24,993 bases of DNA from a virus: IMG/VR virus record IMGVR_UViG_3300025418_000073, positions 1 to 24,993 of that record, one strand, 5' to 3'. The notes beneath the pieces were generated by a model, which saw only the letters and a list, made by a program, of their open reading frames with translations, had not been told where the DNA came from and did no database searches. Below, one piece after another: positions 4,286 to 17,277 of the stretch. How positions within the stretch are numbered: position 1 is the first letter of the stretch; every line of letters begins with the position of its first letter. The position numbers and the translations under genes are program-made.

Positions 4286-6445
4286 ATGTCGCTCGGCTGG
4301 GGTAACAACGGCTGGGGCGTTGATCCGTGGGGCGGCACAGTAATACCAACTGGCGTATCGGCTAGTGGTGTTACGGGGACAGCAGTTAGTAATATCTCTG
4401 TTGCGCTGACAGGAGTCAGTGCAGCAGGGAATACTGGCTCAGAGTTGCCCAATGTCACCGTAGCGTTAAGCGGGGTGGTAGCGGGAGGCTTTACCGGAAC
4501 AGTCACCCCTAATGCATCTGTAGCGGTCTCAGGATCGTCTGCAAGCGGCTTAACGGGTACGGTAACCGCAACGCCTACCTTTGCTCTATCGGGCGTCTTT
4601 GCAAGCGGGTTGACCGGAACGGTTAGCCCATCCTCTGCGGTATCAATCAGCGGTGTCTATGCCGCAGGATTGACGGGAAGCGTTACGCCAAACATTAGCG
4701 TAGCGACTTCAGGCGTATTCGCAACAGGCAGTCAGGGTTCAGAAAGCCCGAACATCACAGTTGCCCTTTCTGGCGTATACGCAAGCGGTTTAACAGGAAC
4801 TGTTACTCCAGTATTCAACATTGCGTTAAGCGGTGTAAGTGCATCTGGATTTACGGGTTCGGTTAGCGCAAACAACACAGTCTCTGTATCTGGCGTTGTC
4901 GCTAATGGTTTAACCGGCACAGCTACGGCTACGCCGACATTCAGTTTAAACGGCGTATCAGCAAGTGGCTTTACGGGTTCTGTATCGCCTAGCAGCAGTA
5001 TTACTGCATCGGGCGTCTTTGCCTCTGGTAATACGGGATCAGAATTACCCAACGTAACGGTAGCGCTTTCTGGCGTCTTTGGAAGCGCCTTTGTGGGTAC
5101 GGTTACTGCTTCGCCAAGTATTGCGATCAGTGGTGTTTCGGCGGCAGGGCTTACGGGTTCTGTTTCGCCAAGTTCGAGTATTGCCCTATCAGGCGTCAGC
5201 GCAAATGGCCTAACTGGAACAATTACTCCTGTTCAATCCATCGCAATCAGCGGCGTATCAGCGAGTGGATTTACTGGAAACGTCACTGCAAGTCCTTCTA
5301 TTGCGGTATCAGGTGTTAGCGCAAGCGGGTTTACCGGAACAGTTTCACCAAGTATAGATAAAGCGGTTAGCGGAGCTTCTGCGAATGGGCTGACCGGAAC
5401 CGTCACGGCTACACCGACCTTTGCATTAAGCGGAGTATTCGCAAGCGTATTGACAGGATCGGTATCGCCAAGTAGTTCCATTGGTATATCGGGCGTATTC
5501 GCGCAGGGCAATACAGGATCAGAGCTACCCAACGTCACCGTAGCCTTGTCAGGCGTCTTTGCGAGTGGATTCACAGGCACAGTCACACCTAACTTTAATA
5601 TCGCGACGAGCGGAGTATCAGCAGCAGGTCTAACGGGTTCCGTTACCCAAAGTAAAAATGTTGCGCTTTCTGGTGTTGCCGCCAATGGATTGACCGGGGC
5701 AGCTACAGCCACACCTCAAATTGCGGTAAGCGGCGTATATGGCAGTGGTTTTGTGGGTTCTGTCACCGCCGTTCCCACAATAGGTTTAAACGGCGTTGTC
5801 GCGGCAGGACTGACAGGCTTAGTATCGACAGGTAAAGATGCTGCGCTGTCTGGTGTTTACGCTACAGGAAACGCGGGATCAGAACTTCCGAACGTCACGG
5901 TTGCCTTATCAGGCGTACTGGCAAGCGGTTATGTCACTGCGCCGTTCCCTATCACGAGCAAGGCAATTAGCGGAGTAGCAGCATCAGGTTTAGTAGGTTC
6001 AGTTACTAACTCTAGCGCTATTGGTTTAAACGGCGTGGTCGCAGCAGGGCTGACAGGTACAATAACCACAACTTATACACAGGCATTAACAGGCGTCAGC
6101 GCGGCGGGTGTTGTTGGAACAGCTACACCTACGTATAGTCGCAGTATATCGGGAGTAACGGCAAGCGGGTCTGTTGGAAGCGTAGGAACGCCTAGAACGC
6201 TTGGACTTACGGGTGCAAAAGCGGATGGTATTTTAGGGGTCATTGGGTACTTTTATTGGAATCCAATAATAGACACGCAAATCCCTAATTGGATTGGTAT
6301 TATAGATACAGAATCGCCAAGCTGGGCGCAGATAAATGCTGATCAAAACCCAAGCTGGAATGGTATTATAGACACGGAAACTGCCAACTGGACGTCAGTC
6401 GATAACCATGATGATGTAATTTGGGAAACAATAACCACAGTATAG
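4286..6445 (+). CDS. Giant repeat protein of 20-residue units, fibre-like
   Basis: 719 aa. Residues 4-17 form a Gly/Trp motif (GWGNNGWGVDPWGG). Residues about 22-652 are tandem 20-residue units with the consensus ALSGVxAxGxTGxVTPxxxx, where the hydrophobic, Gly and Ser/Thr positions are kept. The final 65 residues switch to short Trp repeats (IIDTQIPNW, IIDTESPSW, ADQNPSW, IIDTETANW). A strong AAGGAG lies six bases before the ATG. The regular short repeat suggests a beta-solenoid or extended fibre shaft; location just before another fibre gene supports a host-contact or tail-appendage role. Similar GV-A-G-GT repeats occur in proteins of environmental phages, with no experimentally known role that I can name. 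Confidence 0.7.
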   Translation: MSLGWGNNGWGVDPWGGTVIPTGVSASGVTGTAVSNISVALTGVSAAGNTGSELPNVTVALSGVVAGGFTGTVTPNASVAVSGSSASGLTGTVTATPTFALSGVFASGLTGTVSPSSAVSISGVYAAGLTGSVTPNISVATSGVFATGSQGSESPNITVALSGVYASGLTGTVTPVFNIALSGVSASGFTGSVSANNTVSVSGVVANGLTGTATATPTFSLNGVSASGFTGSVSPSSSITASGVFASGNTGSELPNVTVALSGVFGSAFVGTVTASPSIAISGVSAAGLTGSVSPSSSIALSGVSANGLTGTITPVQSIAISGVSASGFTGNVTASPSIAVSGVSASGFTGTVSPSIDKAVSGASANGLTGTVTATPTFALSGVFASVLTGSVSPSSSIGISGVFAQGNTGSELPNVTVALSGVFASGFTGTVTPNFNIATSGVSAAGLTGSVTQSKNVALSGVAANGLTGAATATPQIAVSGVYGSGFVGSVTAVPTIGLNGVVAAGLTGLVSTGKDAALSGVYATGNAGSELPNVTVALSGVLASGYVTAPFPITSKAISGVAASGLVGSVTNSSAIGLNGVVAAGLTGTITTTYTQALTGVSAAGVVGTATPTYSRSISGVTASGSVGSVGTPRTLGLTGAKADGILGVIGYFYWNPIIDTQIPNWIGIIDTESPSWAQINADQNPSWNGIIDTETANWTSVDNHDDVIWETITTV
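4349..6240 (+). repeat. Tandem 60-bp coding repeat, 31 complete units
   Basis: From 4381 to 6240 the sequence reads as 31 consecutive units of exactly 60 bases, plus a partial unit from about 4349. I see no insertion or deletion between units: the Gly-Val and Gly-x-Thr-Gly codons fall at the same place in every 60-base line. Units differ mostly at third codon positions. A distinct unit type encoding GSELPNVTVALSGV recurs at about 4441, 4741 (variant ESPNI), 5041, 5521 and 5881; a second type encoding TATPTF recurs at about 4561, 4921, 5401 and 5701 (variant TATPQI). Confidence 0.9.
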
Positions 6446-6452
6446 GAAAATC

Positions 6453-9400
6453 ATGTCAACTTGGACGAGTAACCTTTATATACAGTTAATTGGGACCGGG
6501 GAACAGTCTGGTACATGGGGAACCACCACCAACGGCAACTTCCAGTACGTGTTTGAAGAAGCGATTGTAGGACGTACAACCGTTTCATTTTCCGATGCGA
6601 ACGTCACCCTAAGCGCGACACAGGCCACTACCGATCAAGCCTTTAGAAACGTATACCTAAACTGTACCGGTACAAACACGGCGCAGCGTAACTTGATCGT
6701 ACCTACGATCAACAAGAACTATATTGTTGAGAACAATACCACCGGCGGCTTTGGTATTCAGGTCATTACTGCGGCGGGAACAGGCATTGTCGTTCCTAAC
6801 GGATACAAAGCAGCGTTGTACGTAGATGGAACGAACGTTGTTACTGCGTTTAACTACCTGACCGCACTGGCCTCTCCATCTTTCACCAATACTTCTTTGA
6901 CCTCTGGGCGGGTGGTGTATTCCACCACAGGTGGACTACAGACCGACTCTGCTAACCTGACGTTCAACGGTACAACCTTAACGGCGAATACCTTAAACCT
7001 CACAAACGCCTTGGTTACGACCTATGGCGGCACGGGGTTAAGTTCCTACACAGCAGGTGATCTGCCTTATTACGCATCTGGAACCGCGCTGTCTAAGCTA
7101 GGGATTGGTACGTCCGGCTACATCCTGACCTCCAGTGGAACTGCCCCGCAGTGGAGCAACAGCATCAGCATTGGCTCAATCACTGCTACATCTATCACAG
7201 ACTCTGGCAACCTGACCTTTACAGGCACAGGAAGCCGTGTATTAGCCGACTTTACCAACGCGACTGTTACTAACCGTCTAGCGTTTCAGACCAGCACCAC
7301 AAACGGTACTACGGGTATTTACGCCCTGCCGAACGGTACGAGCACGGCGGCTTCATGGCAAGCGACTAACGCGGCTGATCCTACCAACGCCTCTAAGATT
7401 CTGATTGCGACTAACGGCTCTACAGACGTACAGCTTGTATCAGGGATTAACGGTACAGGTACATATCTGCCATTGAGTTTCTATACCAATGGTTCTCAGC
7501 AAATGCGCTTGGATACGTCTGGCAACCTAGGACTAGGTGTTACGCCGAGTGCTTGGGGGAGCGGTAAAGCAATTGATATATCTGTATTTACTGGTTTGTG
7601 GAGTCTTTCAACTCAAACTCATTTAATAAGTAATGGATATTGGAACGGCACAAACTATATTTATAAAACAACAAATGCAGCCGCTGATTATGCACAAATT
7701 GATAACACGCATCGTTGGTATATAGCCCCCTCCGGCACAGCAGGTAACACTATCACTTTCACTCAGGCGATGACGCTGGATGCTAGCGGTCGCCTCCTAA
7801 TCGGCACTACCTCTGCTAGTGGTTCTAACTATCTGCAAGTGAATAGTGATGCGCGTATTAACGGTATGACGGTGGGATTGGGTGGTGGTAGTGTTGTCTA
7901 TAACACGGCGGTAGGCGCAAGTGCTTTATCTTCTAATACAACAGGTGGATATAATGTTTCAGTTGGCTATGGAACACTTGGTTCTAATACGACCGCCAAT
8001 TACAACACTGCCATTGGTTATCAATCTCTCAACGCCAGCACAACAGCCAGTAGTATTACCGCAATTGGGTATCAAGCCGGATATACTGGAACTATTGGAA
8101 ACAGTGGTGATGTTTTTGTTGGATTTAAAGCGGGATATACAAAAAATACCGCATCCGATATATTTGCAACCACATTAGTTGGTGATGTAGCCGGAACTCT
8201 AATTACTACAGGTACCGATAATACAGGGTTTGGCGGATATTCTTTAAGTAGCACCACATCAGGTAGTCAAAACGTTGCTGTCGGCGGTGGTGCTTTGCGT
8301 TACAACACCACCGCCTCTTACAACACTGCCGTAGGTTATCAAGCTGGGTATAGTAATACGACTGGTGGAAATGGAGTATATGTTGGTGTTGGTGCTGGTT
8401 ATTCAAATACTACGGCAAATGACAATACATTTGTAGGTTGGAGCGCTGGTTATTTCAACACTACAGGAGCAAACAATACTTCTAGTGGCAGAAGTTCTCT
8501 TTATGCAAACACAACAGGAGGAGAGAATTCTGCTTACGGATGGGGTGCTTTAAATCAAAACACAATTGGTAATTATAATACTGCACATGGTTCTAGGTCA
8601 TTATTCTCAAACACCACCGCCTCTTCCAACACCGCTGTAGGTTTTCAGGCTGCCTATAGCAACACGACAGGAAATGTCAACGCCTTTGGTTATCAAGCTC
8701 TATATGCCAACACCACTGGAACTGAAAATGCTGCTTTTGGAAATGCTGCACTTGCAACAGTAACAACTGGAATCCAAAATGCTGCGTTTGGCGCTAGATC
8801 ATTACAATACAATACCGCAAATCAAAACTCAGGATTTGGTATTGCTGCTTTAGGTACAAACACAAGTGGTGGATCAAACGCTGCTTTAGGTTTTGCTGCT
8901 CTTTATTCAAATACCACAGGTAGCACAAATACCGCCGTAGGAAGTCAGTCTCTTTATTCAAACACCACCGCCTCTAACAATACTGCTGTTGGGTATCAGG
9001 CTGGATATACAAATACTACAGGCACTTCATTAACTGCTGTTGGTTACTATGCGTTAACCTTAAATACCACTGGTAACGGAAATACCGCTGTAGGTTTAAA
9101 TGCGGCTGTAAATAACACAAGCGGAAGTTCAAACAGTGCTTTCGGTCAACAGTCGCTTAATGCTAATACTACTGGTGGAAATAATACTGCGATTGGTTAT
9201 CAATCCCTACTTTCAAATACTACTTCAAATGGCAACACCGCTGTAGGTTTCCAAGCTGGGTATAGTACTACTGGTACTTATTTAACTGCGGTCGGCTACC
9301 AAGCTGGGTATAGCAACACTACAGGCGGTTCCACATTTATTGGTAATAAAGCTGCGTATTCAACAACTACAGGTGGAGATAATACTGTTGTAGGTGATTC

Positions 9401-10919
9401 TGCTTTATATACAAACACCACAGGTAACGTCAATGTGGCGATGGGAGTATCTGCTTTATATTTCAATACTACAGGTGCATCAAATGTGGCTATTGGAGTA
9501 TCAGCTTTAAGAGGAAACACCACCGCATCTAACAACACAGCAGTAGGGTATCAGGCGGCTTATTCAAATAGTACGGGTACGGGTATTGTTGCTGTTGGTT
9601 ATACAGCGTTGAAAGCAAATACCGCATCAAATAATACAGCCGTTGGAAATGGCGCAATGGCGTTAAATACAAGCGGAACATTTAATACCGCAGTAGGTGG
9701 TATTGAAGCTAGTGGTTATCCTGCGCTTTATTCTAATTTAACTGGTAATTACCATGTTGCTATTGGTGCTGGTGCTTTAGGTAAAACTGATGGCGCACAA
9801 TATAATGTGGCCGTAGGATATCAATCTTTATTCAGCAACACCACCGCTTCTTACAACACAGCAGTAGGTTATCAGTCTGGGTATAGTAGTACAGGACAAC
9901 AAGGAACTTTTATTGGATATTTTTCAGGGTATTACAATACATCTGGCGTAAGGAACACAGCGGTAGGATATGGTGCTTTTGCTACAGGCGGTTCGGTTGG
10001 AACGGGTTCAAACAACACTGCTATTGGTTCGTTAGCAAATCAAGCTAATACGTCTGGAAATTACAACGTTTCTGTTGGTGATTCTGCCCTTTACTCCAAC
10101 ACCACAGCTTCTAACAACACCGCAGTAGGTTATCAGGCTGGATATAGTAATACTACAGGAACAGGATTAACTGCTATTGGTTATCAAGCAGCATATTCAA
10201 ACTCAACAGGAGCTTCTTATACAACTGCTGTTGGTTGGCAAGCGTTATATGCAAACACAACTGGCTTATATAATACTGCCGTTGGTCAATCTTCTTTAAG
10301 TTCAAACACAACAGGTGGTAATAATTCTTCACTAGGATTGGCTTCTTTATCATCAAATACTACAGGCTCTAATAATGTTGCGATTGGTTCAAACGCTCTT
10401 TATTATAATTCCACAGCCGCTAACAACACCGCTGTAGGTTTTCAATCGGGTCAAAATATTACAACCGGTTCTAAAAATACCATCCTTGGTAGCTATTCAG
10501 GAAACTCAGGCGGCCTAGACATCCGCACAGCATCTAACTACTTAGTAATGTCTGATGGTGACGGCAACGTCCTCCAAGTAATAGATTCTGGTAAAGCTAC
10601 ATGGCAGCCATTAAGCCTTACGTCTAAATCTGCTGCTGCAACTTTAACACTAGCAATCTTGCAAACCGGAATGATCCAATATACCGGTTCTGCTGCGGCT
10701 CTGACGTTTGATACAGGTTCAAATATAGATGCAGCAGGTTCTATTGCGACTAATACCGCACTTCAATTTACCGTAGTCAATACTGGTTCTGGTACGGCTA
10801 CAGTAACCGCAGCAACAGGCGTTACAATCGTAGGTGTTGCAACTGTAGCGGCAACATCCTCTGGCACATTTAAGTTCCTCAAAACCGCAGCAAATACGTT
10901 TGTTGCTTATCGTATGTAA
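6453..10919 (+). CDS. Giant tail-fibre / adhesin-like protein with YadA-head-like repeats
   Basis: 1488 aa. Residues 1-135 form an N-terminal domain with the pattern GTGEQSGTWGTTTNGN and later VPNGYKAALYVDGTN, seen at the start of many environmental phage fibres and probably the virion-binding part. Residues about 136-483 are beta-rich Thr/Ser/Gly linkers (GGTGLSSYTAGDLPYYASG; LTFNGTTLTANTL). Residues about 484-1350 are roughly fifty 17-residue units around NTAVGYQAGYSNTTG, resembling the left-handed coil of trimeric adhesin heads. A capping segment (LDIRTASNYLVMSDGDGN) leads into a C-terminal beta domain of about 95 residues. No S74-type intramolecular chaperone is visible. Probable role: trimeric fibre for host recognition. 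Confidence 0.75.
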   Translation: MSTWTSNLYIQLIGTGEQSGTWGTTTNGNFQYVFEEAIVGRTTVSFSDANVTLSATQATTDQAFRNVYLNCTGTNTAQRNLIVPTINKNYIVENNTTGGFGIQVITAAGTGIVVPNGYKAALYVDGTNVVTAFNYLTALASPSFTNTSLTSGRVVYSTTGGLQTDSANLTFNGTTLTANTLNLTNALVTTYGGTGLSSYTAGDLPYYASGTALSKLGIGTSGYILTSSGTAPQWSNSISIGSITATSITDSGNLTFTGTGSRVLADFTNATVTNRLAFQTSTTNGTTGIYALPNGTSTAASWQATNAADPTNASKILIATNGSTDVQLVSGINGTGTYLPLSFYTNGSQQMRLDTSGNLGLGVTPSAWGSGKAIDISVFTGLWSLSTQTHLISNGYWNGTNYIYKTTNAAADYAQIDNTHRWYIAPSGTAGNTITFTQAMTLDASGRLLIGTTSASGSNYLQVNSDARINGMTVGLGGGSVVYNTAVGASALSSNTTGGYNVSVGYGTLGSNTTANYNTAIGYQSLNASTTASSITAIGYQAGYTGTIGNSGDVFVGFKAGYTKNTASDIFATTLVGDVAGTLITTGTDNTGFGGYSLSSTTSGSQNVAVGGGALRYNTTASYNTAVGYQAGYSNTTGGNGVYVGVGAGYSNTTANDNTFVGWSAGYFNTTGANNTSSGRSSLYANTTGGENSAYGWGALNQNTIGNYNTAHGSRSLFSNTTASSNTAVGFQAAYSNTTGNVNAFGYQALYANTTGTENAAFGNAALATVTTGIQNAAFGARSLQYNTANQNSGFGIAALGTNTSGGSNAALGFAALYSNTTGSTNTAVGSQSLYSNTTASNNTAVGYQAGYTNTTGTSLTAVGYYALTLNTTGNGNTAVGLNAAVNNTSGSSNSAFGQQSLNANTTGGNNTAIGYQSLLSNTTSNGNTAVGFQAGYSTTGTYLTAVGYQAGYSNTTGGSTFIGNKAAYSTTTGGDNTVVGDSALYTNTTGNVNVAMGVSALYFNTTGASNVAIGVSALRGNTTASNNTAVGYQAAYSNSTGTGIVAVGYTALKANTASNNTAVGNGAMALNTSGTFNTAVGGIEASGYPALYSNLTGNYHVAIGAGALGKTDGAQYNVAVGYQSLFSNTTASYNTAVGYQSGYSSTGQQGTFIGYFSGYYNTSGVRNTAVGYGAFATGGSVGTGSNNTAIGSLANQANTSGNYNVSVGDSALYSNTTASNNTAVGYQAGYSNTTGTGLTAIGYQAAYSNSTGASYTTAVGWQALYANTTGLYNTAVGQSSLSSNTTGGNNSSLGLASLSSNTTGSNNVAIGSNALYYNSTAANNTAVGFQSGQNITTGSKNTILGSYSGNSGGLDIRTASNYLVMSDGDGNVLQVIDSGKATWQPLSLTSKSAAATLTLAILQTGMIQYTGSAAALTFDTGSNIDAAGSIATNTALQFTVVNTGSGTATVTAATGVTIVGVATVAATSSGTFKFLKTAANTFVAYRM
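7902..10510 (+). repeat. Array of about fifty 51-bp (17-residue) coding repeats
   Basis: Imperfect tandem units encoding variants of NTAVGYQALYSNTTGxx. Most are 17 residues, some are one to several residues longer or shorter (for example at about 8090-8220, 9690-9790 and 9880-10020). A sub-type with a better-conserved DNA core (ACACCACCGCCTCT followed by an AAC-rich stretch) recurs near 8303, 8609, 8960, 9514, 9837 and 10098, about every five to seven units. Unlike the preceding gene, this array does have length variation. Confidence 0.85.
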
Positions 10920-11659: not shown

Positions 11660-11835
11660 ATCATGAAACGATCTTGATATGGCTCCTTGTCTACGTGGTA
11701 GGCATATCAGGAACGGTAGGCGCAGTATGTAATTTTGACGTTATACCGTGTGAACAGACGGGTGACACAACACAATGGACGCTACAACTGATAGCGGTCG
11801 TTGTTTCATTATTAGCCGGGAGGAAAGATGGCTGA
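11656..11835 (+). CDS. Small two-span membrane protein of the lysis module
   Basis: 59 aa. Two hydrophobic stretches, residues about 6-24 and 42-55, are joined by a short polar loop with two cysteines (C25 and C32) that could form a disulfide in the periplasm. The C-terminus ends in RKDG, a positive cap likely on the cytoplasmic side, and the N-terminus is short and polar. It starts at an ATGA overlap and runs eight bases into the holin gene, so the three are co-translated. Two-span topology is typical of class II holins or antiholins; this is inference from topology and context. Confidence 0.6.
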   Translation: MNHETILIWLLVYVVGISGTVGAVCNFDVIPCEQTGDTTQWTLQLIAVVVSLLAGRKDG

Positions 11836-12337
11836 TTGGTTAGATACTTTAGAGAAGTTAGCACCCACTGTTGCGTCAGCCCTTGGTAGTCCTGTAGCGG
11901 GTATGGCTGTCGGTGCTCTTGAGTCTGCTTTGGGTATGTCTGGTGATGACGTACAAAAGACGATTGAAACTGGCAAGTTAACAGGCGATCAAGTCGCTGC
12001 TATTCAGCAAGCTGAACTTGCGTTGAAAGCCAAAGCGCAAGAACTAGGACTGGACTTTGCCAAGCTAGGAAACGAAGATCGTGCTTCTGCTAGACAGATG
12101 CAGCAGAACGTTAAGTCATGGGTGCCTCCTTTTCTCGCGATTGCGGTCACTCTGGGATTCTTCGGAATACTGGTAGGTCTCATGTTAGGCAAGATCAATC
12201 AAGCGACCGAAGTAGACATTATGTTGGGAAGTCTTGGAACCGCATGGACAGGAATCGTATCTTTTTTCTTTGGTTCAAGCGCATCTAGCCAAAGCAAAGA
12301 TCATATGTTGTATAACTCTCAACCATTAAATAAATGA
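11828..12337 (+). CDS. Holin, GTA/3TM holin-like
   Basis: 169 aa. Residues 12-36 form a hydrophobic or amphipathic helix (APTVASALGSPVAGMAVGAL). Residues about 50-95 are a soluble helical segment with the family-like pattern GNEDRASARQM. Two strong spans follow at about 98-120 and 128-149 (ending VSFFFGSS). This order matches the 3TM holin family named for gene transfer agent release, whose members make the inner-membrane lesion that lets the endolysin out. A GGGAGG site lies just before the ATG. It is followed by an HNH gene overlapping the stop, then the M15 peptidase that is its likely lysis partner. Confidence 0.8.
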   Translation: MADWLDTLEKLAPTVASALGSPVAGMAVGALESALGMSGDDVQKTIETGKLTGDQVAAIQQAELALKAKAQELGLDFAKLGNEDRASARQMQQNVKSWVPPFLAIAVTLGFFGILVGLMLGKINQATEVDIMLGSLGTAWTGIVSFFFGSSASSQSKDHMLYNSQPLNK

Positions 12338-12765
12338 CGTATAAAGCGCGGGTTTGTAGGTCATGTTCTTTGGTTTTTCAGCCAAATACTTCTCGCGAGG
12401 CGTGGTGCAGCAATGATTGTCGCTTTAAGTCTCATATAAACCCTAAGTGGGATGTAAATGAATGTTGGGAATGGGATGGTGCTATATTTAAAAAAACAGG
12501 ATATGGTCAATTTGGCTCAGGAAAAAGCGGGGTTTATACCGCCCATAAGTATTCATATCAGTTGTTTAAAGGACAAGTTCCTGAGGGGTTATTTGTTTGT
12601 CACTCTTGCGATAACAGAAAGTGCTTTAACCCAAATCATTTGTGGGTTGGGACGCATGCAGATAACATGAACGACATGATACAAAAAGGCAGATCGACCC
12701 TTGGTAACAAATACCCGCAATGTTCGGGTGATAACCATTGGCGAAAGCGTAAGGAACAAAAATGA
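12334..12765 (+). CDS. Free-standing HNH homing endonuclease
   Basis: 143 aa. The N-terminus has a possible zinc knuckle (C8, C11, C25, C29). The HNH core follows the HNH_3 layout: CWEWDGAIFKKTGYGQF at 44-60, AHKYSYQLFKG at 70-80, then H90, CDNRKCFNPNHL at 92-103 and GTHADNMNDMIQKGR at 106-120. H90, N99 and H102 are the likely metal and catalytic residues. Such enzymes nick or cut phage DNA at a specific site and spread by repair into uninfected copies. It is more AT-rich than its neighbours and splits the holin-peptidase pair, both signs of a mobile gene. No intron boundary is apparent. Confidence 0.9.
   Translation: MTYKARVCRSCSLVFQPNTSREAWCSNDCRFKSHINPKWDVNECWEWDGAIFKKTGYGQFGSGKSGVYTAHKYSYQLFKGQVPEGLFVCHSCDNRKCFNPNHLWVGTHADNMNDMIQKGRSTLGNKYPQCSGDNHWRKRKEQK
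12751..12755 (+). promoter_or_regulatory. AAGGA ribosome binding site for the M15 peptidase inside the HNH gene
   Basis: AAGGA lies six bases before ATG 12762, within the last codons of the homing endonuclease gene. The holin end has no comparable site, so the inserted gene supplies translation initiation for the downstream peptidase. Confidence 0.6.
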
Positions 12766-13205
12766 CACAACTCTCACCTCATTTTAGTTTAGAAGAACTG
12801 ACTCATTCAGACGTAGCCGTGCGTAACGGTTATGACAATACGCCTGATGAAGCGACTATTCTTAATCTGACGCGCCTTGCGGAGTTCCTAGAAAAAGTTA
12901 AACGGCTTTTGAACGACAAGCCCGTGATGATTTCCTCGGCTTACCGCAGCAAGCAAGTAAATGATGCAGTGGGTTCAAAGGATACAAGCCAGCATAGGCT
13001 TGGTTGTGCCGCAGACATTCGAGTGCCGGGAATGACGCCAGATGAGGTCACGCAGGCAATTAAAAATTCAGATTTGCCCTTTGATCAGGTTATAAGAGAA
13101 TTTGATGCTTGGACCCATCTGTCTGTGCCTAATCGCGAGGGAGAGCAACCAAGAGGTCAGGCGCTTATTATTGACAAGCAGGGTACACGCATTTACACGG
13201 CTTAA
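12762..13205 (+). CDS. Endolysin, M15-family zinc D,D- or L,D-peptidase
   Basis: 147 aa. The start (SPHFSLEELTHSDVAVRNG) is typical of M15 phage and cell-wall peptidases of the M15_3 type. Y61-R62 in SSAYRSKQVNDAVG, the zinc motif SQHRLGCAADI (H78 and D85) and the second metal site WTHLSV (H119) are all present, so the active site looks complete. The enzyme would cut peptide crosslinks in peptidoglycan. It has no signal peptide or membrane anchor, so it depends on the holin for access to the wall. It overlaps the HNH gene by ATGA and has its AAGGA site inside that gene. Confidence 0.9.
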   Translation: MTQLSPHFSLEELTHSDVAVRNGYDNTPDEATILNLTRLAEFLEKVKRLLNDKPVMISSAYRSKQVNDAVGSKDTSQHRLGCAADIRVPGMTPDEVTQAIKNSDLPFDQVIREFDAWTHLSVPNREGEQPRGQALIIDKQGTRIYTA

Positions 13206-15881: not shown

Positions 15882-16162
15882 TGGATTATTTGAAACTCTT
15901 TATCGAAGTTGCGCAAGTTTCACGCCCAACTTATAGAGACAAAATCAAGTTAACTGATTTAAACACTCCGCTGACAGCAACAGAACTGGATAGCCTTGAT
16001 TGCCTGATGATCGGTATGTATCTCTGCGAGATATACGGCATAGACGAAGAAGTGTCCAAAACTATGCAGCCTTCTACCCCGCAAGGGTATTTTGATTTCT
16101 GTAACGAACATAAAACACGCGAACCAAGTTCAGCGGAAGAAGCTTTGTCATGGATCGTATGA
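15881..16162 (+). CDS. Acyl carrier protein-like protein
   Basis: 93 aa. The centre reads ELDSLDCLMIGMYLCEIYGI, which fits helix II of acyl carrier proteins: S38 in D37-S38-L39-D40 would be the attachment serine for 4'-phosphopantetheine. The following stretch ends with STPQGYFDFCNEHK, placed like the last helix of ACP (TTVQAAIDYINGHQ in E. coli AcpP). The N-terminal 35 residues are helical but diverged. The size is close to the usual 75-90 residues, with a C-terminal extension of about 15. The GxDSL glycine is replaced (L36), so the host's transferase may or may not load it. It starts at a TAATG overlap and runs 13 bases into the ketosynthase gene, which strongly supports a working pair. Confidence 0.75.
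   Translation: MDYLKLFIEVAQVSRPTYRDKIKLTDLNTPLTATELDSLDCLMIGMYLCEIYGIDEEVSKTMQPSTPQGYFDFCNEHKTREPSSAEEALSWIV
16135..16139 (+). promoter_or_regulatory. GGAAG ribosome binding site for the ketosynthase
   Basis: GGAAG lies ten bases before ATG 16150. A second in-frame ATG at 16159 overlaps the upstream stop as ATGA but would be 19 bases from this site. The TC before ATG 16150 also matches the start context used by several other genes here, so 16150 is slightly favoured. Confidence 0.45.
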
Positions 16163-17277
16163 TTTACCTGACTGAAAAACGTATCGCTTATACCGAAGAA
16201 ACAACAAGCCTTCTGGACGTGATGTATCCCCAGAACGTGCATCTGTTCCCTGATACCTACGCCAAGACCAATACAGGCATGGTGTATCCCCCGCATAAAC
16301 TTGCGGATAAAGTCATTGATCCTGAAATCATGGAGCGTAGTCGAGATAATCCTATCCGTACCGCCTTTATTCTTGCCGCAGGAAACGCTCACTTTGCGGG
16401 TTTAAACCCAAAGGATAAAGAGCCTAACTGCCTAAGCTATGACTACAAGCCCTTGCCTATGACGTTAACGCAGGTCTATGCGGGGCGTATAGCGGCTGCA
16501 TTTGGTGCGACAGATTTAGTCGTCACGGATGCATCAGCTTGCGCATCAAGTTTAAAGGTCATGATGGATGTACAGACCTACATACGCAACTATGCGTTTG
16601 ATCGCGTGATTGTGTTGGGCGTAGAAGATGCTGTGAGTAATACGGTATTGAACTTCTTTGGTCAATCTGGCGCATCCTTAACCTTAGAGAAAGAAAAACA
16701 AGGCGAAATACGCAGTGCGTTTGATCCGGTAAACGGTGGATTCTATGTCGGTCAAGGTGCCGTTTTTGCTATGTTTGAGACCGAAAGAAGCATCAGATAC
16801 AGCGGAAATACTCCTTGTGCGGAGCTTATTAGCGCCTATTCAGCCAGCGAGCATAGTACCAATGCCATCGGTCAGCGCGAGGACGGACAGGGGTTTAAAC
16901 GGGCGATACAGGGCGTGGTTTACGGCGGGAATGTAGATTTAAACAAGATACGGCTGGTGAAAACGCATGGCACAGGAACGAAGTCGAATGACTTAGCAGA
17001 ACGAACGGCTTTGACAGCTACGCTCAAAGAGTTTCAAGCAACATCGTTTAAACAGAGAATTGGTCATACGATGGGCGCAAGCGGCTTGCTCGAGACTATA
17101 CTCTTGTTAGATAATGTAAAAAACGGTTTAGTACCTGCCATTCCTAACCGTACAGACGAAGATAGTATCTTTTTAAGCAAACCTGTCCCCGCAGAGAGGG
17201 GAGGATTGATTTTAAGTCTTGCGGCTGGAATGGGTAATATCTATTCAGCGGCAATCTTTAAGGACTTGCAATGCTGA
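16150..17277 (+). CDS. Beta-ketoacyl-ACP synthase (thiolase-fold ketosynthase)
   Basis: 375 aa. It carries the full active-site set of KAS I/II enzymes: nucleophile C131 in DASACASSLKVM, H273 in KTHGTGTKSNDLAE, and K301 with H306 in KQRIGHTMGASG. The Lys-to-His gap of five equals that of E. coli FabF (K335/H340), and the Cys-to-His gap (142) is close to FabF's 140. Other family blocks are VYAGRIAAAFGA, GGFYVGQGAVFAMFE and a short C-terminal Gly loop (AAGMGN) where FabF has GFGGTN. The N-terminal 100 residues are diverged, and the protein is about 35 residues shorter than FabF. It would condense an acyl chain with malonyl-ACP. Numbering uses ATG 16150; the alternative is 16159. The downstream gene overlaps its stop. 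Confidence 0.85.
   Translation: MDRMIYLTEKRIAYTEETTSLLDVMYPQNVHLFPDTYAKTNTGMVYPPHKLADKVIDPEIMERSRDNPIRTAFILAAGNAHFAGLNPKDKEPNCLSYDYKPLPMTLTQVYAGRIAAAFGATDLVVTDASACASSLKVMMDVQTYIRNYAFDRVIVLGVEDAVSNTVLNFFGQSGASLTLEKEKQGEIRSAFDPVNGGFYVGQGAVFAMFETERSIRYSGNTPCAELISAYSASEHSTNAIGQREDGQGFKRAIQGVVYGGNVDLNKIRLVKTHGTGTKSNDLAERTALTATLKEFQATSFKQRIGHTMGASGLLETILLLDNVKNGLVPAIPNRTDEDSIFLSKPVPAERGGLILSLAAGMGNIYSAAIFKDLQC

What the first reader, a model, noticed from the sequence alone, without database searches (positions are those of the whole stretch)
12332..12766. Clean junction of the homing endonuclease between holin and endolysin
AAATGAC occurs at 12332-12338, where the holin stops and the HNH gene starts, and again at 12760-12766, where the peptidase starts. 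Removing one copy plus the intervening 428 bases would join holin and peptidase as a standard ATGA overlap. The inserted gene carries an AAGGA six bases before the peptidase ATG, so it replaces the lost coupling. A seven-base match could arise by chance because ATGA overlaps are common here.
Basis: partly seen in the sequence, partly recalled or inferred. Interest (0 to 1): 0.5.

Follow-up and report, generated by a model that had tools for sequence, protein, structure and literature searches.

The report
Mobile nuclease gene in phage lysis cassette
A small gene for a probable DNA-cutting enzyme sits exactly, start-to-stop, between two genes that this phage probably uses to burst its host, and its close relatives occupy the same slot in quite different phages, so it looks like a mobile gene with one favourite address.

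Summary
The HNH gene (12334-12765) overlaps the holin stop and the peptidase start by ATGA, with AAATGAC at both ends. HNH-free relatives (holin 87-89%, peptidase 69-86% identical) join holin to peptidase by the same overlap, and two further carrier/empty pairs agree, so the gene is an exact, optional insert. The seven-base repeat means little: 29 of 144 uninterrupted junctions carry AAATGAC, and other members share 4-9 bases or none. Coupling is kept, not lost.

New here: all 10 lineages found of this HNH clade start on a holin stop, although holins differ and endolysins are M15_3, VanY or GH108. In 100 related contigs the other 16 HNH_3 matches lie elsewhere. In one pair a 420-bp stretch holding the HNH gene (86% identity) is the only DNA match between the two contigs as held. 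Two further nuclease clades (EndoVII-like; SNase) also sit between holin and endolysin. Best reading: a free-standing, homing-endonuclease-like gene that plugs into a start/stop overlap. Cleavage and homing are untested. Precedents exist (Hafnia phage Ca; T4 mobE; a GIY-YIG gene between spanin genes).

The parts
11828..12337 (+). holin-like gene (169 aa), upstream flank of the insert
   Evidence: phrog_1544 (function unknown) E 2e-15; a GenBank stretch similar to part of it is annotated 'holin'; the equivalent genes of L085, L117 and L033 match Pfam GTA_holin_3TM, the window's own does not. Holin function is not shown.
12334..12337 (+). ATGA: HNH start overlapping the holin stop
   Evidence: the same 4-base overlap (ATGA, GTGA in L086) in 10 of 10 clade lineages
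12334..12765 (+). inserted HNH endonuclease gene (143 aa): N-terminal C8-C11-C25-C29 motif, HNH_3 core
   Evidence: PF13392 E 5e-10; zf-His_Me_endon 6e-4, below its cut-off; phrog_1872 4e-22; C8, C11, C25, C29, H71, H90, N99, H102 invariant in 10 of 10
12751..12755 (+). AAGGA, ribosome-binding-like site for the peptidase carried by the 3' end of the HNH gene
   Evidence: anti-SD duplex -6.1 kcal/mol against a mean of -3.5 at 144 uninterrupted endolysin starts
12762..12765 (+). ATGA: peptidase start overlapping the HNH stop
12762..13205 (+). endolysin-type peptidase (M15_3, 147 aa), downstream flank
   Evidence: PF08291 E 2e-20; phrog_894 endolysin 3e-37

Best explanation
The 428 bases are a free-standing, mobile HNH nuclease gene of the homing-endonuclease type. 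It entered the holin-endolysin start/stop overlap of a lysis cassette without damaging either gene. It works as a plug-in: its first bases (ATGA) supply the holin's stop codon, and the endolysin's first bases (ATGA) supply its own stop, so both reading frames and the overlap survive. The HNH start has no ribosome-binding site of its own in the window, so it is probably made at low level by ribosomes finishing the holin; its 3' end gives the peptidase an AAGGA. Shown by sequence: exact optional insertion; the same position in 10 lineages with different holins and endolysins; near-gene-exact sharing without the flanks in one pair; purifying selection in that pair. Inferred: DNA cleavage, copying into HNH-free phages during co-infection, translational coupling.
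For: HNH_3 domain with invariant motif residues. HNH-free relatives joined by ATGA: L001 (holin 87%, peptidase 86%), L089 (89%, 69%), L027 against HNH+ L033 (95%, 75%), L149 against HNH+ L117 (87%, 81%). Ten of ten clade lineages found begin on the holin stop, with M15_3, VanY and GH108 endolysins downstream. L033 and L120: HNH 89% aa / 87% nt but holin 45% and endolysin 37% aa; blastn of the whole L033 contig (8.3 kb) against 13.8 of 23.2 kb of the L120 contig gives one match, 420 bp at 85.7%, from 5 bases before the HNH start to 18 (L033) or 28 (L120) bases past its stop. dN/dS of HNH in that pair 0.07. 16 of 18 HNH_3 matches in 100 related contigs are not at this junction; the two that are belong to the clade. 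No Rfam match in the window.
Against: No cleavage or homing assay. The flanks of different members share little DNA, so ordinary homing, which needs flank homology, cannot by itself explain spread between cassette types. The HNH tree partly follows holin type (L085 with L140, 91/96), so part of the pattern may be inheritance with the holin plus endolysin exchange. An SNase clade, not a homing class known to me, shares the interval. For the window's own copy no flank-free transfer was seen: its nearest HNH relatives L083 and L084 match it in DNA into the holin as well. Structure prediction failed (pLDDT 42) and no PDB sequence relative was found.
Confidence: 0.7

Rival explanations
1. Lysis-timed accessory nuclease: the gene is kept in the lysis operon because a nuclease made with holin and endolysin helps at lysis, for example by cutting host DNA so that progeny disperse. 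Different phages recruited different nucleases for the same job.
For: Three nuclease clades of different families sit between holin and endolysin, the last two with either GH108 or M15_3 endolysins: this HNH clade (10 of 10 lineages on the holin stop), an EndoVII-like clade (9 of 9 loci at 59% identity or more, about 4 lineages; 5 of 5 at 44% or less have no holin or endolysin match within 1.5 kb) and an SNase clade (6 of 6 loci at 85% or more, about 4 lineages; the other 74 loci kept have no such match within 1.5 kb). The SNase begins with a hydrophobic, signal-peptide-like stretch (by eye). HNH dN/dS 0.07.
Against: Rare: 7 of 143 junction clusters by my sorting. Close relatives do without it. 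HNH and EndoVII types are usual homing classes. In L333 the EndoVII-like gene is broken early while the holin is 99% identical to that of L332, where it is open.
Confidence: 0.17
2. Neutral recombination hot spot: the ATGA overlap at a junction where endolysins are swapped tolerates any passing gene; the nuclease has no special link to the site.
For: Non-nuclease genes also occur there: a subtilase (L010) and small or unknown genes (L036, L166, L176, L192, L198, L201, L209, L210). Endolysin classes alternate downstream of similar holins. Of 18 HNH_3 matches in 100 contigs only 2 are at the junction.
Against: It does not explain why the close members of three nuclease clades were found there and not elsewhere.
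Confidence: 0.1
3. Ancestral gene order: the HNH gene is an old resident and the HNH-free phages lost it.
For: HNH partly tracks holin type; loss would give the same empty junctions.
Against: L033 and L120 share the HNH gene at 86% DNA identity while nothing else in the 8.3 and 13.8 kb compared matches; 2 of 182 junctions in the sample carry it.
Confidence: 0.03

Closest known systems
HNH homing endonuclease gene of Hafnia phage Ca (PMC8861465; passages read)
   Same: HNH gene of 143 aa in a 397-bp fragment whose GTG start overlaps the TGA stop of a lysis gene and whose end overlaps the next gene; present or absent in one phage population
   Different: Lies between a lysis protein and the large terminase gene of an Autographiviridae phage; its sequence was not compared here; single case
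Free-standing mob/seg endonucleases of phage T4, e.g. mobE on the nrdA stop (PMC2988022; passages read)
   Same: Intron-less nuclease gene whose start overlaps the upstream stop, with translational coupling proposed
   Different: Other insertion sites; mobility shown for seg enzymes, which cut far from their gene
GIY-YIG homing endonuclease gene separating the two spanin genes in phages Shivani and phiR201 but not T5 (PMC6139136; passages read)
   Same: Homing-type gene between lysis genes that overlap in a relative
   Different: Other nuclease family and other lysis genes
Skunavirus HNH endonucleases (PMC12724721; passages read)
   Same: Free-standing HNH genes at recurring insertion locations in a phage group
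   Different: 126 of 179 in the early region; a word-start search for 'holin' and 'lysin' in its text gave 0

Membership tests
free-standing HNH homing endonuclease | HNH catalytic domain | tested here: met
   PF13392 above cut-off; motif residues invariant in 10 of 10
free-standing HNH homing endonuclease | independent ORF, not in an intron or intein | tested here: met
   insert is the ORF itself between two intact genes; no Rfam match at gathering score in the window
free-standing HNH homing endonuclease | sporadic presence; close relatives carry the uninterrupted site | tested here: met
   three carrier/empty lineages (window, L033, L117)
free-standing HNH homing endonuclease | mobility of the gene apart from its flanks | tested here: met
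   one pair, L033 against L120; for the window's own copy not seen
free-standing HNH homing endonuclease | sequence-specific cut in genomes lacking the gene | not testable with these tools
   needs protein and DNA; no cut site identified
free-standing HNH homing endonuclease | preferential inheritance in mixed infection | not testable with these tools
   needs phage crosses
packaging-associated HNH proteins (Kala et al. 2014; recalled, and seen cited) | gene near the terminase or cos site | tested here: not met
   neighbours are holin and endolysin; absent from the close relatives
transposon-like insert with target-site duplication | direct repeat of constant length at both ends | tested here: not met
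   shared sequence across the two ends varies from none to 9 bases in the 9 lineages with both ends (read by eye)
accessory lysis gene | effect on lysis | not testable with these tools
   position only

The most novel reading that the evidence does not exclude
The holin|endolysin start/stop overlap is a shared docking site. At least three nuclease clades of different families (HNH_3, EndoVII-like and an SNase with a secretion-type start) became tied to it and occur in otherwise dissimilar lysis cassettes, either because the overlap, conserved for translation rather than for protein sequence, is itself the recognised or recombining sequence, or because a nuclease made at lysis is useful.
Probability: 0.3. 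Interest if true: 0.75.

Novelty: new variant of a known kind. Interest (0 to 1): 0.5.

Why it matters
Homing-type genes are usually held to survive by targeting strongly conserved sequence (recalled), yet this clade keeps one address among readily exchanged phage genes, holin and endolysin. If the start/stop overlap is what is recognised, it would explain how such genes cross between dissimilar cassettes and would tie them to lysis-gene exchange. If the nuclease serves lysis, it adds a part to the lysis module. Natural carrier and empty pairs make both directly testable.

Tried and rejected
AAATGAC as a footprint: rejected. A general nuclease hot spot is only partly borne out. Of 18 PF13392 matches at E 0.001 or better in 100 contigs (16 over the cut-off) 2 are at the junction; of 3 PF02945 matches in the same 100, 1 (L019); PF00565 was run on 50 contigs only, 1 match, at the junction (L113); PF01844 on the other 50 only, 3 matches, none at the junction. 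The family searches missed the weak HNH of L038 and the EndoVII-like gene of L195 and L196, so counts are lower bounds. Structure prediction gave pLDDT 42 and was not used; the PDB sequence search found nothing. A scan of bacterial genomes found one distant relative (40%, L131), with no holin-endolysin pair that I could see in the ORF list. L143 matched the DNA pattern by chance. In the tree the clade is apart from other HNH_3 at 99/99, but inner branches are weak and outgroup branches very long. Literature: nine searches listed no title or abstract start on an HNH clade tied to the holin-endolysin junction; most hits were seen only as listings. Passages of PMC6356687, PMC11797047, PMC6105707 and PMC5601072 showed no such case; two of them place HNH genes at terminase or cos. 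This is not proof of absence.

Full report
What is in the window. The window is a virus record of 24,993 bases. Three genes read in one direction: a holin-like gene 11828-12337, an HNH gene 12334-12765 and an M15_3 peptidase 12762-13205. The peptidase matches an endolysin family (phrog_894). The first gene belongs to phrog_1544, of unknown function, and is called holin because a similar GenBank stretch is so annotated and because equivalent genes of related loci match GTA_holin_3TM. Each neighbour pair overlaps by ATGA.

The seven-base repeat. The census took 186 loci from three searches with the peptidase, the window's holin and a holin alignment; 2 had no holin hit and 2 ended at the holin, leaving 182 junctions. 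Of these 144 run directly into an M15_3 or GH108 endolysin; 125 of the 144 have ATGA, 114 AAATGA and 29 AAATGAC. In the clade the shared sequence at the two ends is AAATGAC (window), AAATGATT (L083), GAAATGAAA (L117), AAATGA (L119, L120) or ATGA (L084, L140); L085 and L033 lack it because their endolysin overlap is 14 bases, and L086 is cut by the contig end (read by eye). It is not a duplication made on insertion.

The empty site exists. The closest relatives have no HNH gene and join holin to endolysin by the predicted overlap: L001 (holin 87%, peptidase 86%), L002 and L003 (78%, 86%), L089 (89%, 69%) and others. L006 and L007 read ATGATGA, so either of two starts overlaps the stop. The window's joined flanks align through the junction with 12 chosen relatives, with small gaps near it; DNA identity is only 51-74%. 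Two other HNH carriers have their own empty partners: L033 with L027 (holin 95%, endolysin 75%) and L117 with L149 (87%, 81%). More distant relatives of the window have other inserts (L010, L036, L038).

The clade and its address. Searches with the HNH protein, with alignment A1 and with a DNA pattern, plus L033 from the peptidase search, give 10 lineages at 60% identity or more to the window: window (L082 encodes the same protein), L083, L084, L085, L086, L033, L117, L119, L120 (L122 and L124 near-identical) and L140. All 10 begin with ATGA (GTGA in L086) on the stop of a holin-type gene. Downstream there is an endolysin in 8: M15_3 type in window, L033, L085, L119 and L120, VanY type in L083, GH108 in L084 and L117 (Pfam: for the window, for L083, L084, L117, L119, L120; L033 and L085 by similarity to the window's peptidase). 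In L140 a 76-aa gene follows. More distant HNH relatives (L087, L126-L131; 32-57%) show no such neighbours in the ORF lists, judged by eye. As a control, 100 contigs of the census were searched whole: 18 HNH_3 matches, 2 at the junction (both clade) and 16 elsewhere (places compared with holin coordinates by hand; G043 and G044 are near-copies). Of the 15 elsewhere copies fetched, those that matched the clade did so at 44% identity or less. Bias to note: L186, one of the two clade cases in census and control, is the L120 contig, and the holin alignment used was built largely from holins of HNH carriers, L120 among them. Only L033 entered through a query free of that bias.

Movement. L033 and L120 share the HNH gene at 89% aa and 87% nt, but holins are 45% and endolysins 37% identical. 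Between the whole 8.3-kb L033 contig and the 13.8 kb held of the L120 contig (23.2 kb) blastn finds a single match of 420 bp, 85.7%, from 5 bases before the HNH start to 18 (L033) or 28 (L120) bases past its stop, that is, into the first codons of the endolysin. dN/dS in this pair is 0.07. Against this, the HNH tree partly follows holin type (L085 with L140, 91/96), and the window's DNA match with L083 and L084 runs on into the holin, so inheritance with the holin and exchange of the endolysin also contribute; L083 and L084 have HNH 79% but VanY and GH108 endolysins.

Expression. The HNH start has no usable Shine-Dalgarno in the window, L083 and L084, but several others have one. The start after the HNH gene has an anti-SD duplex of -3.1 kcal/mol or stronger in 8 of 9 lineages (L083 is the exception); the 144 uninterrupted endolysin starts average -3.5. 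In 10 of the 12 chosen HNH-free relatives of the window it is weaker than -1, but L001 equals the window (-6.1) and L006 has -9.0. So the insert keeps the overlap and carries its own site for the peptidase. Coupling itself is inferred.

Not the only nuclease there. In the census the junction also holds a weak PF01844 HNH (L038), an SNase (L109, L111, L113), an EndoVII-like gene (L195, L196; phrog_1035 E 7e-25, Pfam HNH PF01844) and a PF02945 gene (L019). By my sorting these and the clade make 7 of 143 clusters. Searches with two of them repeated the pattern. For the L195 protein, 9 of 9 loci at 59% identity or more lie after a holin and before GH108 (L325-L329) or M15_3 (L330-L333), about 4 lineages, two of the loci being the L195 and L196 contigs themselves; 5 of 5 at 44% or less have no such neighbours within 1.5 kb. 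For the L113 SNase, 6 of 6 loci at 85% or more lie between a holin and GH108 (L245-L248) or M15_3 (L249, L250), again about 4 lineages including the L111 and L113 contigs, with about 200 bases or a small gene between holin and SNase in L247, L249 and L250; the other 74 of the 80 loci kept (248 confirmed) showed no holin or endolysin match to my query set within 1.5 kb. In L333 the EndoVII-like gene is broken early while the holin is 99% identical to that of L332, as expected of an expendable gene, unless it is a sequencing error.

Reading. HNH and EndoVII-like enzymes are homing classes (the EndoVII class from the abstract start of PMC6083498 in a listing), which favours mobile, self-serving genes. 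The SNase does not fit that and keeps the lysis-helper reading open. Published precedents cover the main elements: Hafnia phage Ca, T4 mobE and the GIY-YIG gene between spanins; of all I read passages only. What I did not find described is whole clades tied to this junction across different holins and endolysins (searches named under Tried and rejected).

Limits. Nearly all relatives are uncultured virus contigs; lineages are not independent samples; the searches find members by sequence patterns and keep at most 80 loci, so divergent members elsewhere could be missed; no enzymatic test was possible.

Noticed in passing
window 16150-17277: Beta-ketoacyl-synthase-like protein (PF02801 4e-16, PF00109 1e-11) downstream of virion genes; also phrog_35856, function unknown.
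   Followed up: no
window 6453-10919: 1488-aa protein of many near-repeats (NTAVGYQAGYSNTTG type) matching virion structural and tail-spike families.
   Followed up: no
window 4286-6445: 719-aa protein built of short SGV.A.G.TG repeats with no PHROG match at E 0.001.
   Followed up: no
L333 1489-1981: EndoVII-like gene at the holin-endolysin junction broken early; the holin is 99% identical to that of L332, where the gene is open. Described only.
   Followed up: partly
L010 2067-2897: Subtilase-like gene (PF00082 2e-5) starting on the holin stop, about 90 bases upstream of the endolysin.
   Followed up: no
L245-L250: SNase clade with a hydrophobic N-terminus found only in holin-endolysin cassettes, with either GH108 or M15_3 endolysin.
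   Followed up: partly
L098-L102, L104: Close holin relatives (80-81%) with no gene directly after the holin; the endolysin is not next to it.
   Followed up: no
L147, L148, L191, L199, L211, L106, L107: A further endolysin class directly on the holin stop: GH19 (Pfam shown for L147 only; the others by look of the sequence).
   Followed up: no
L228 (contig of L033, bases 1-1400): A second, different HNH_3 gene elsewhere on the contig that carries a clade member.
   Followed up: no
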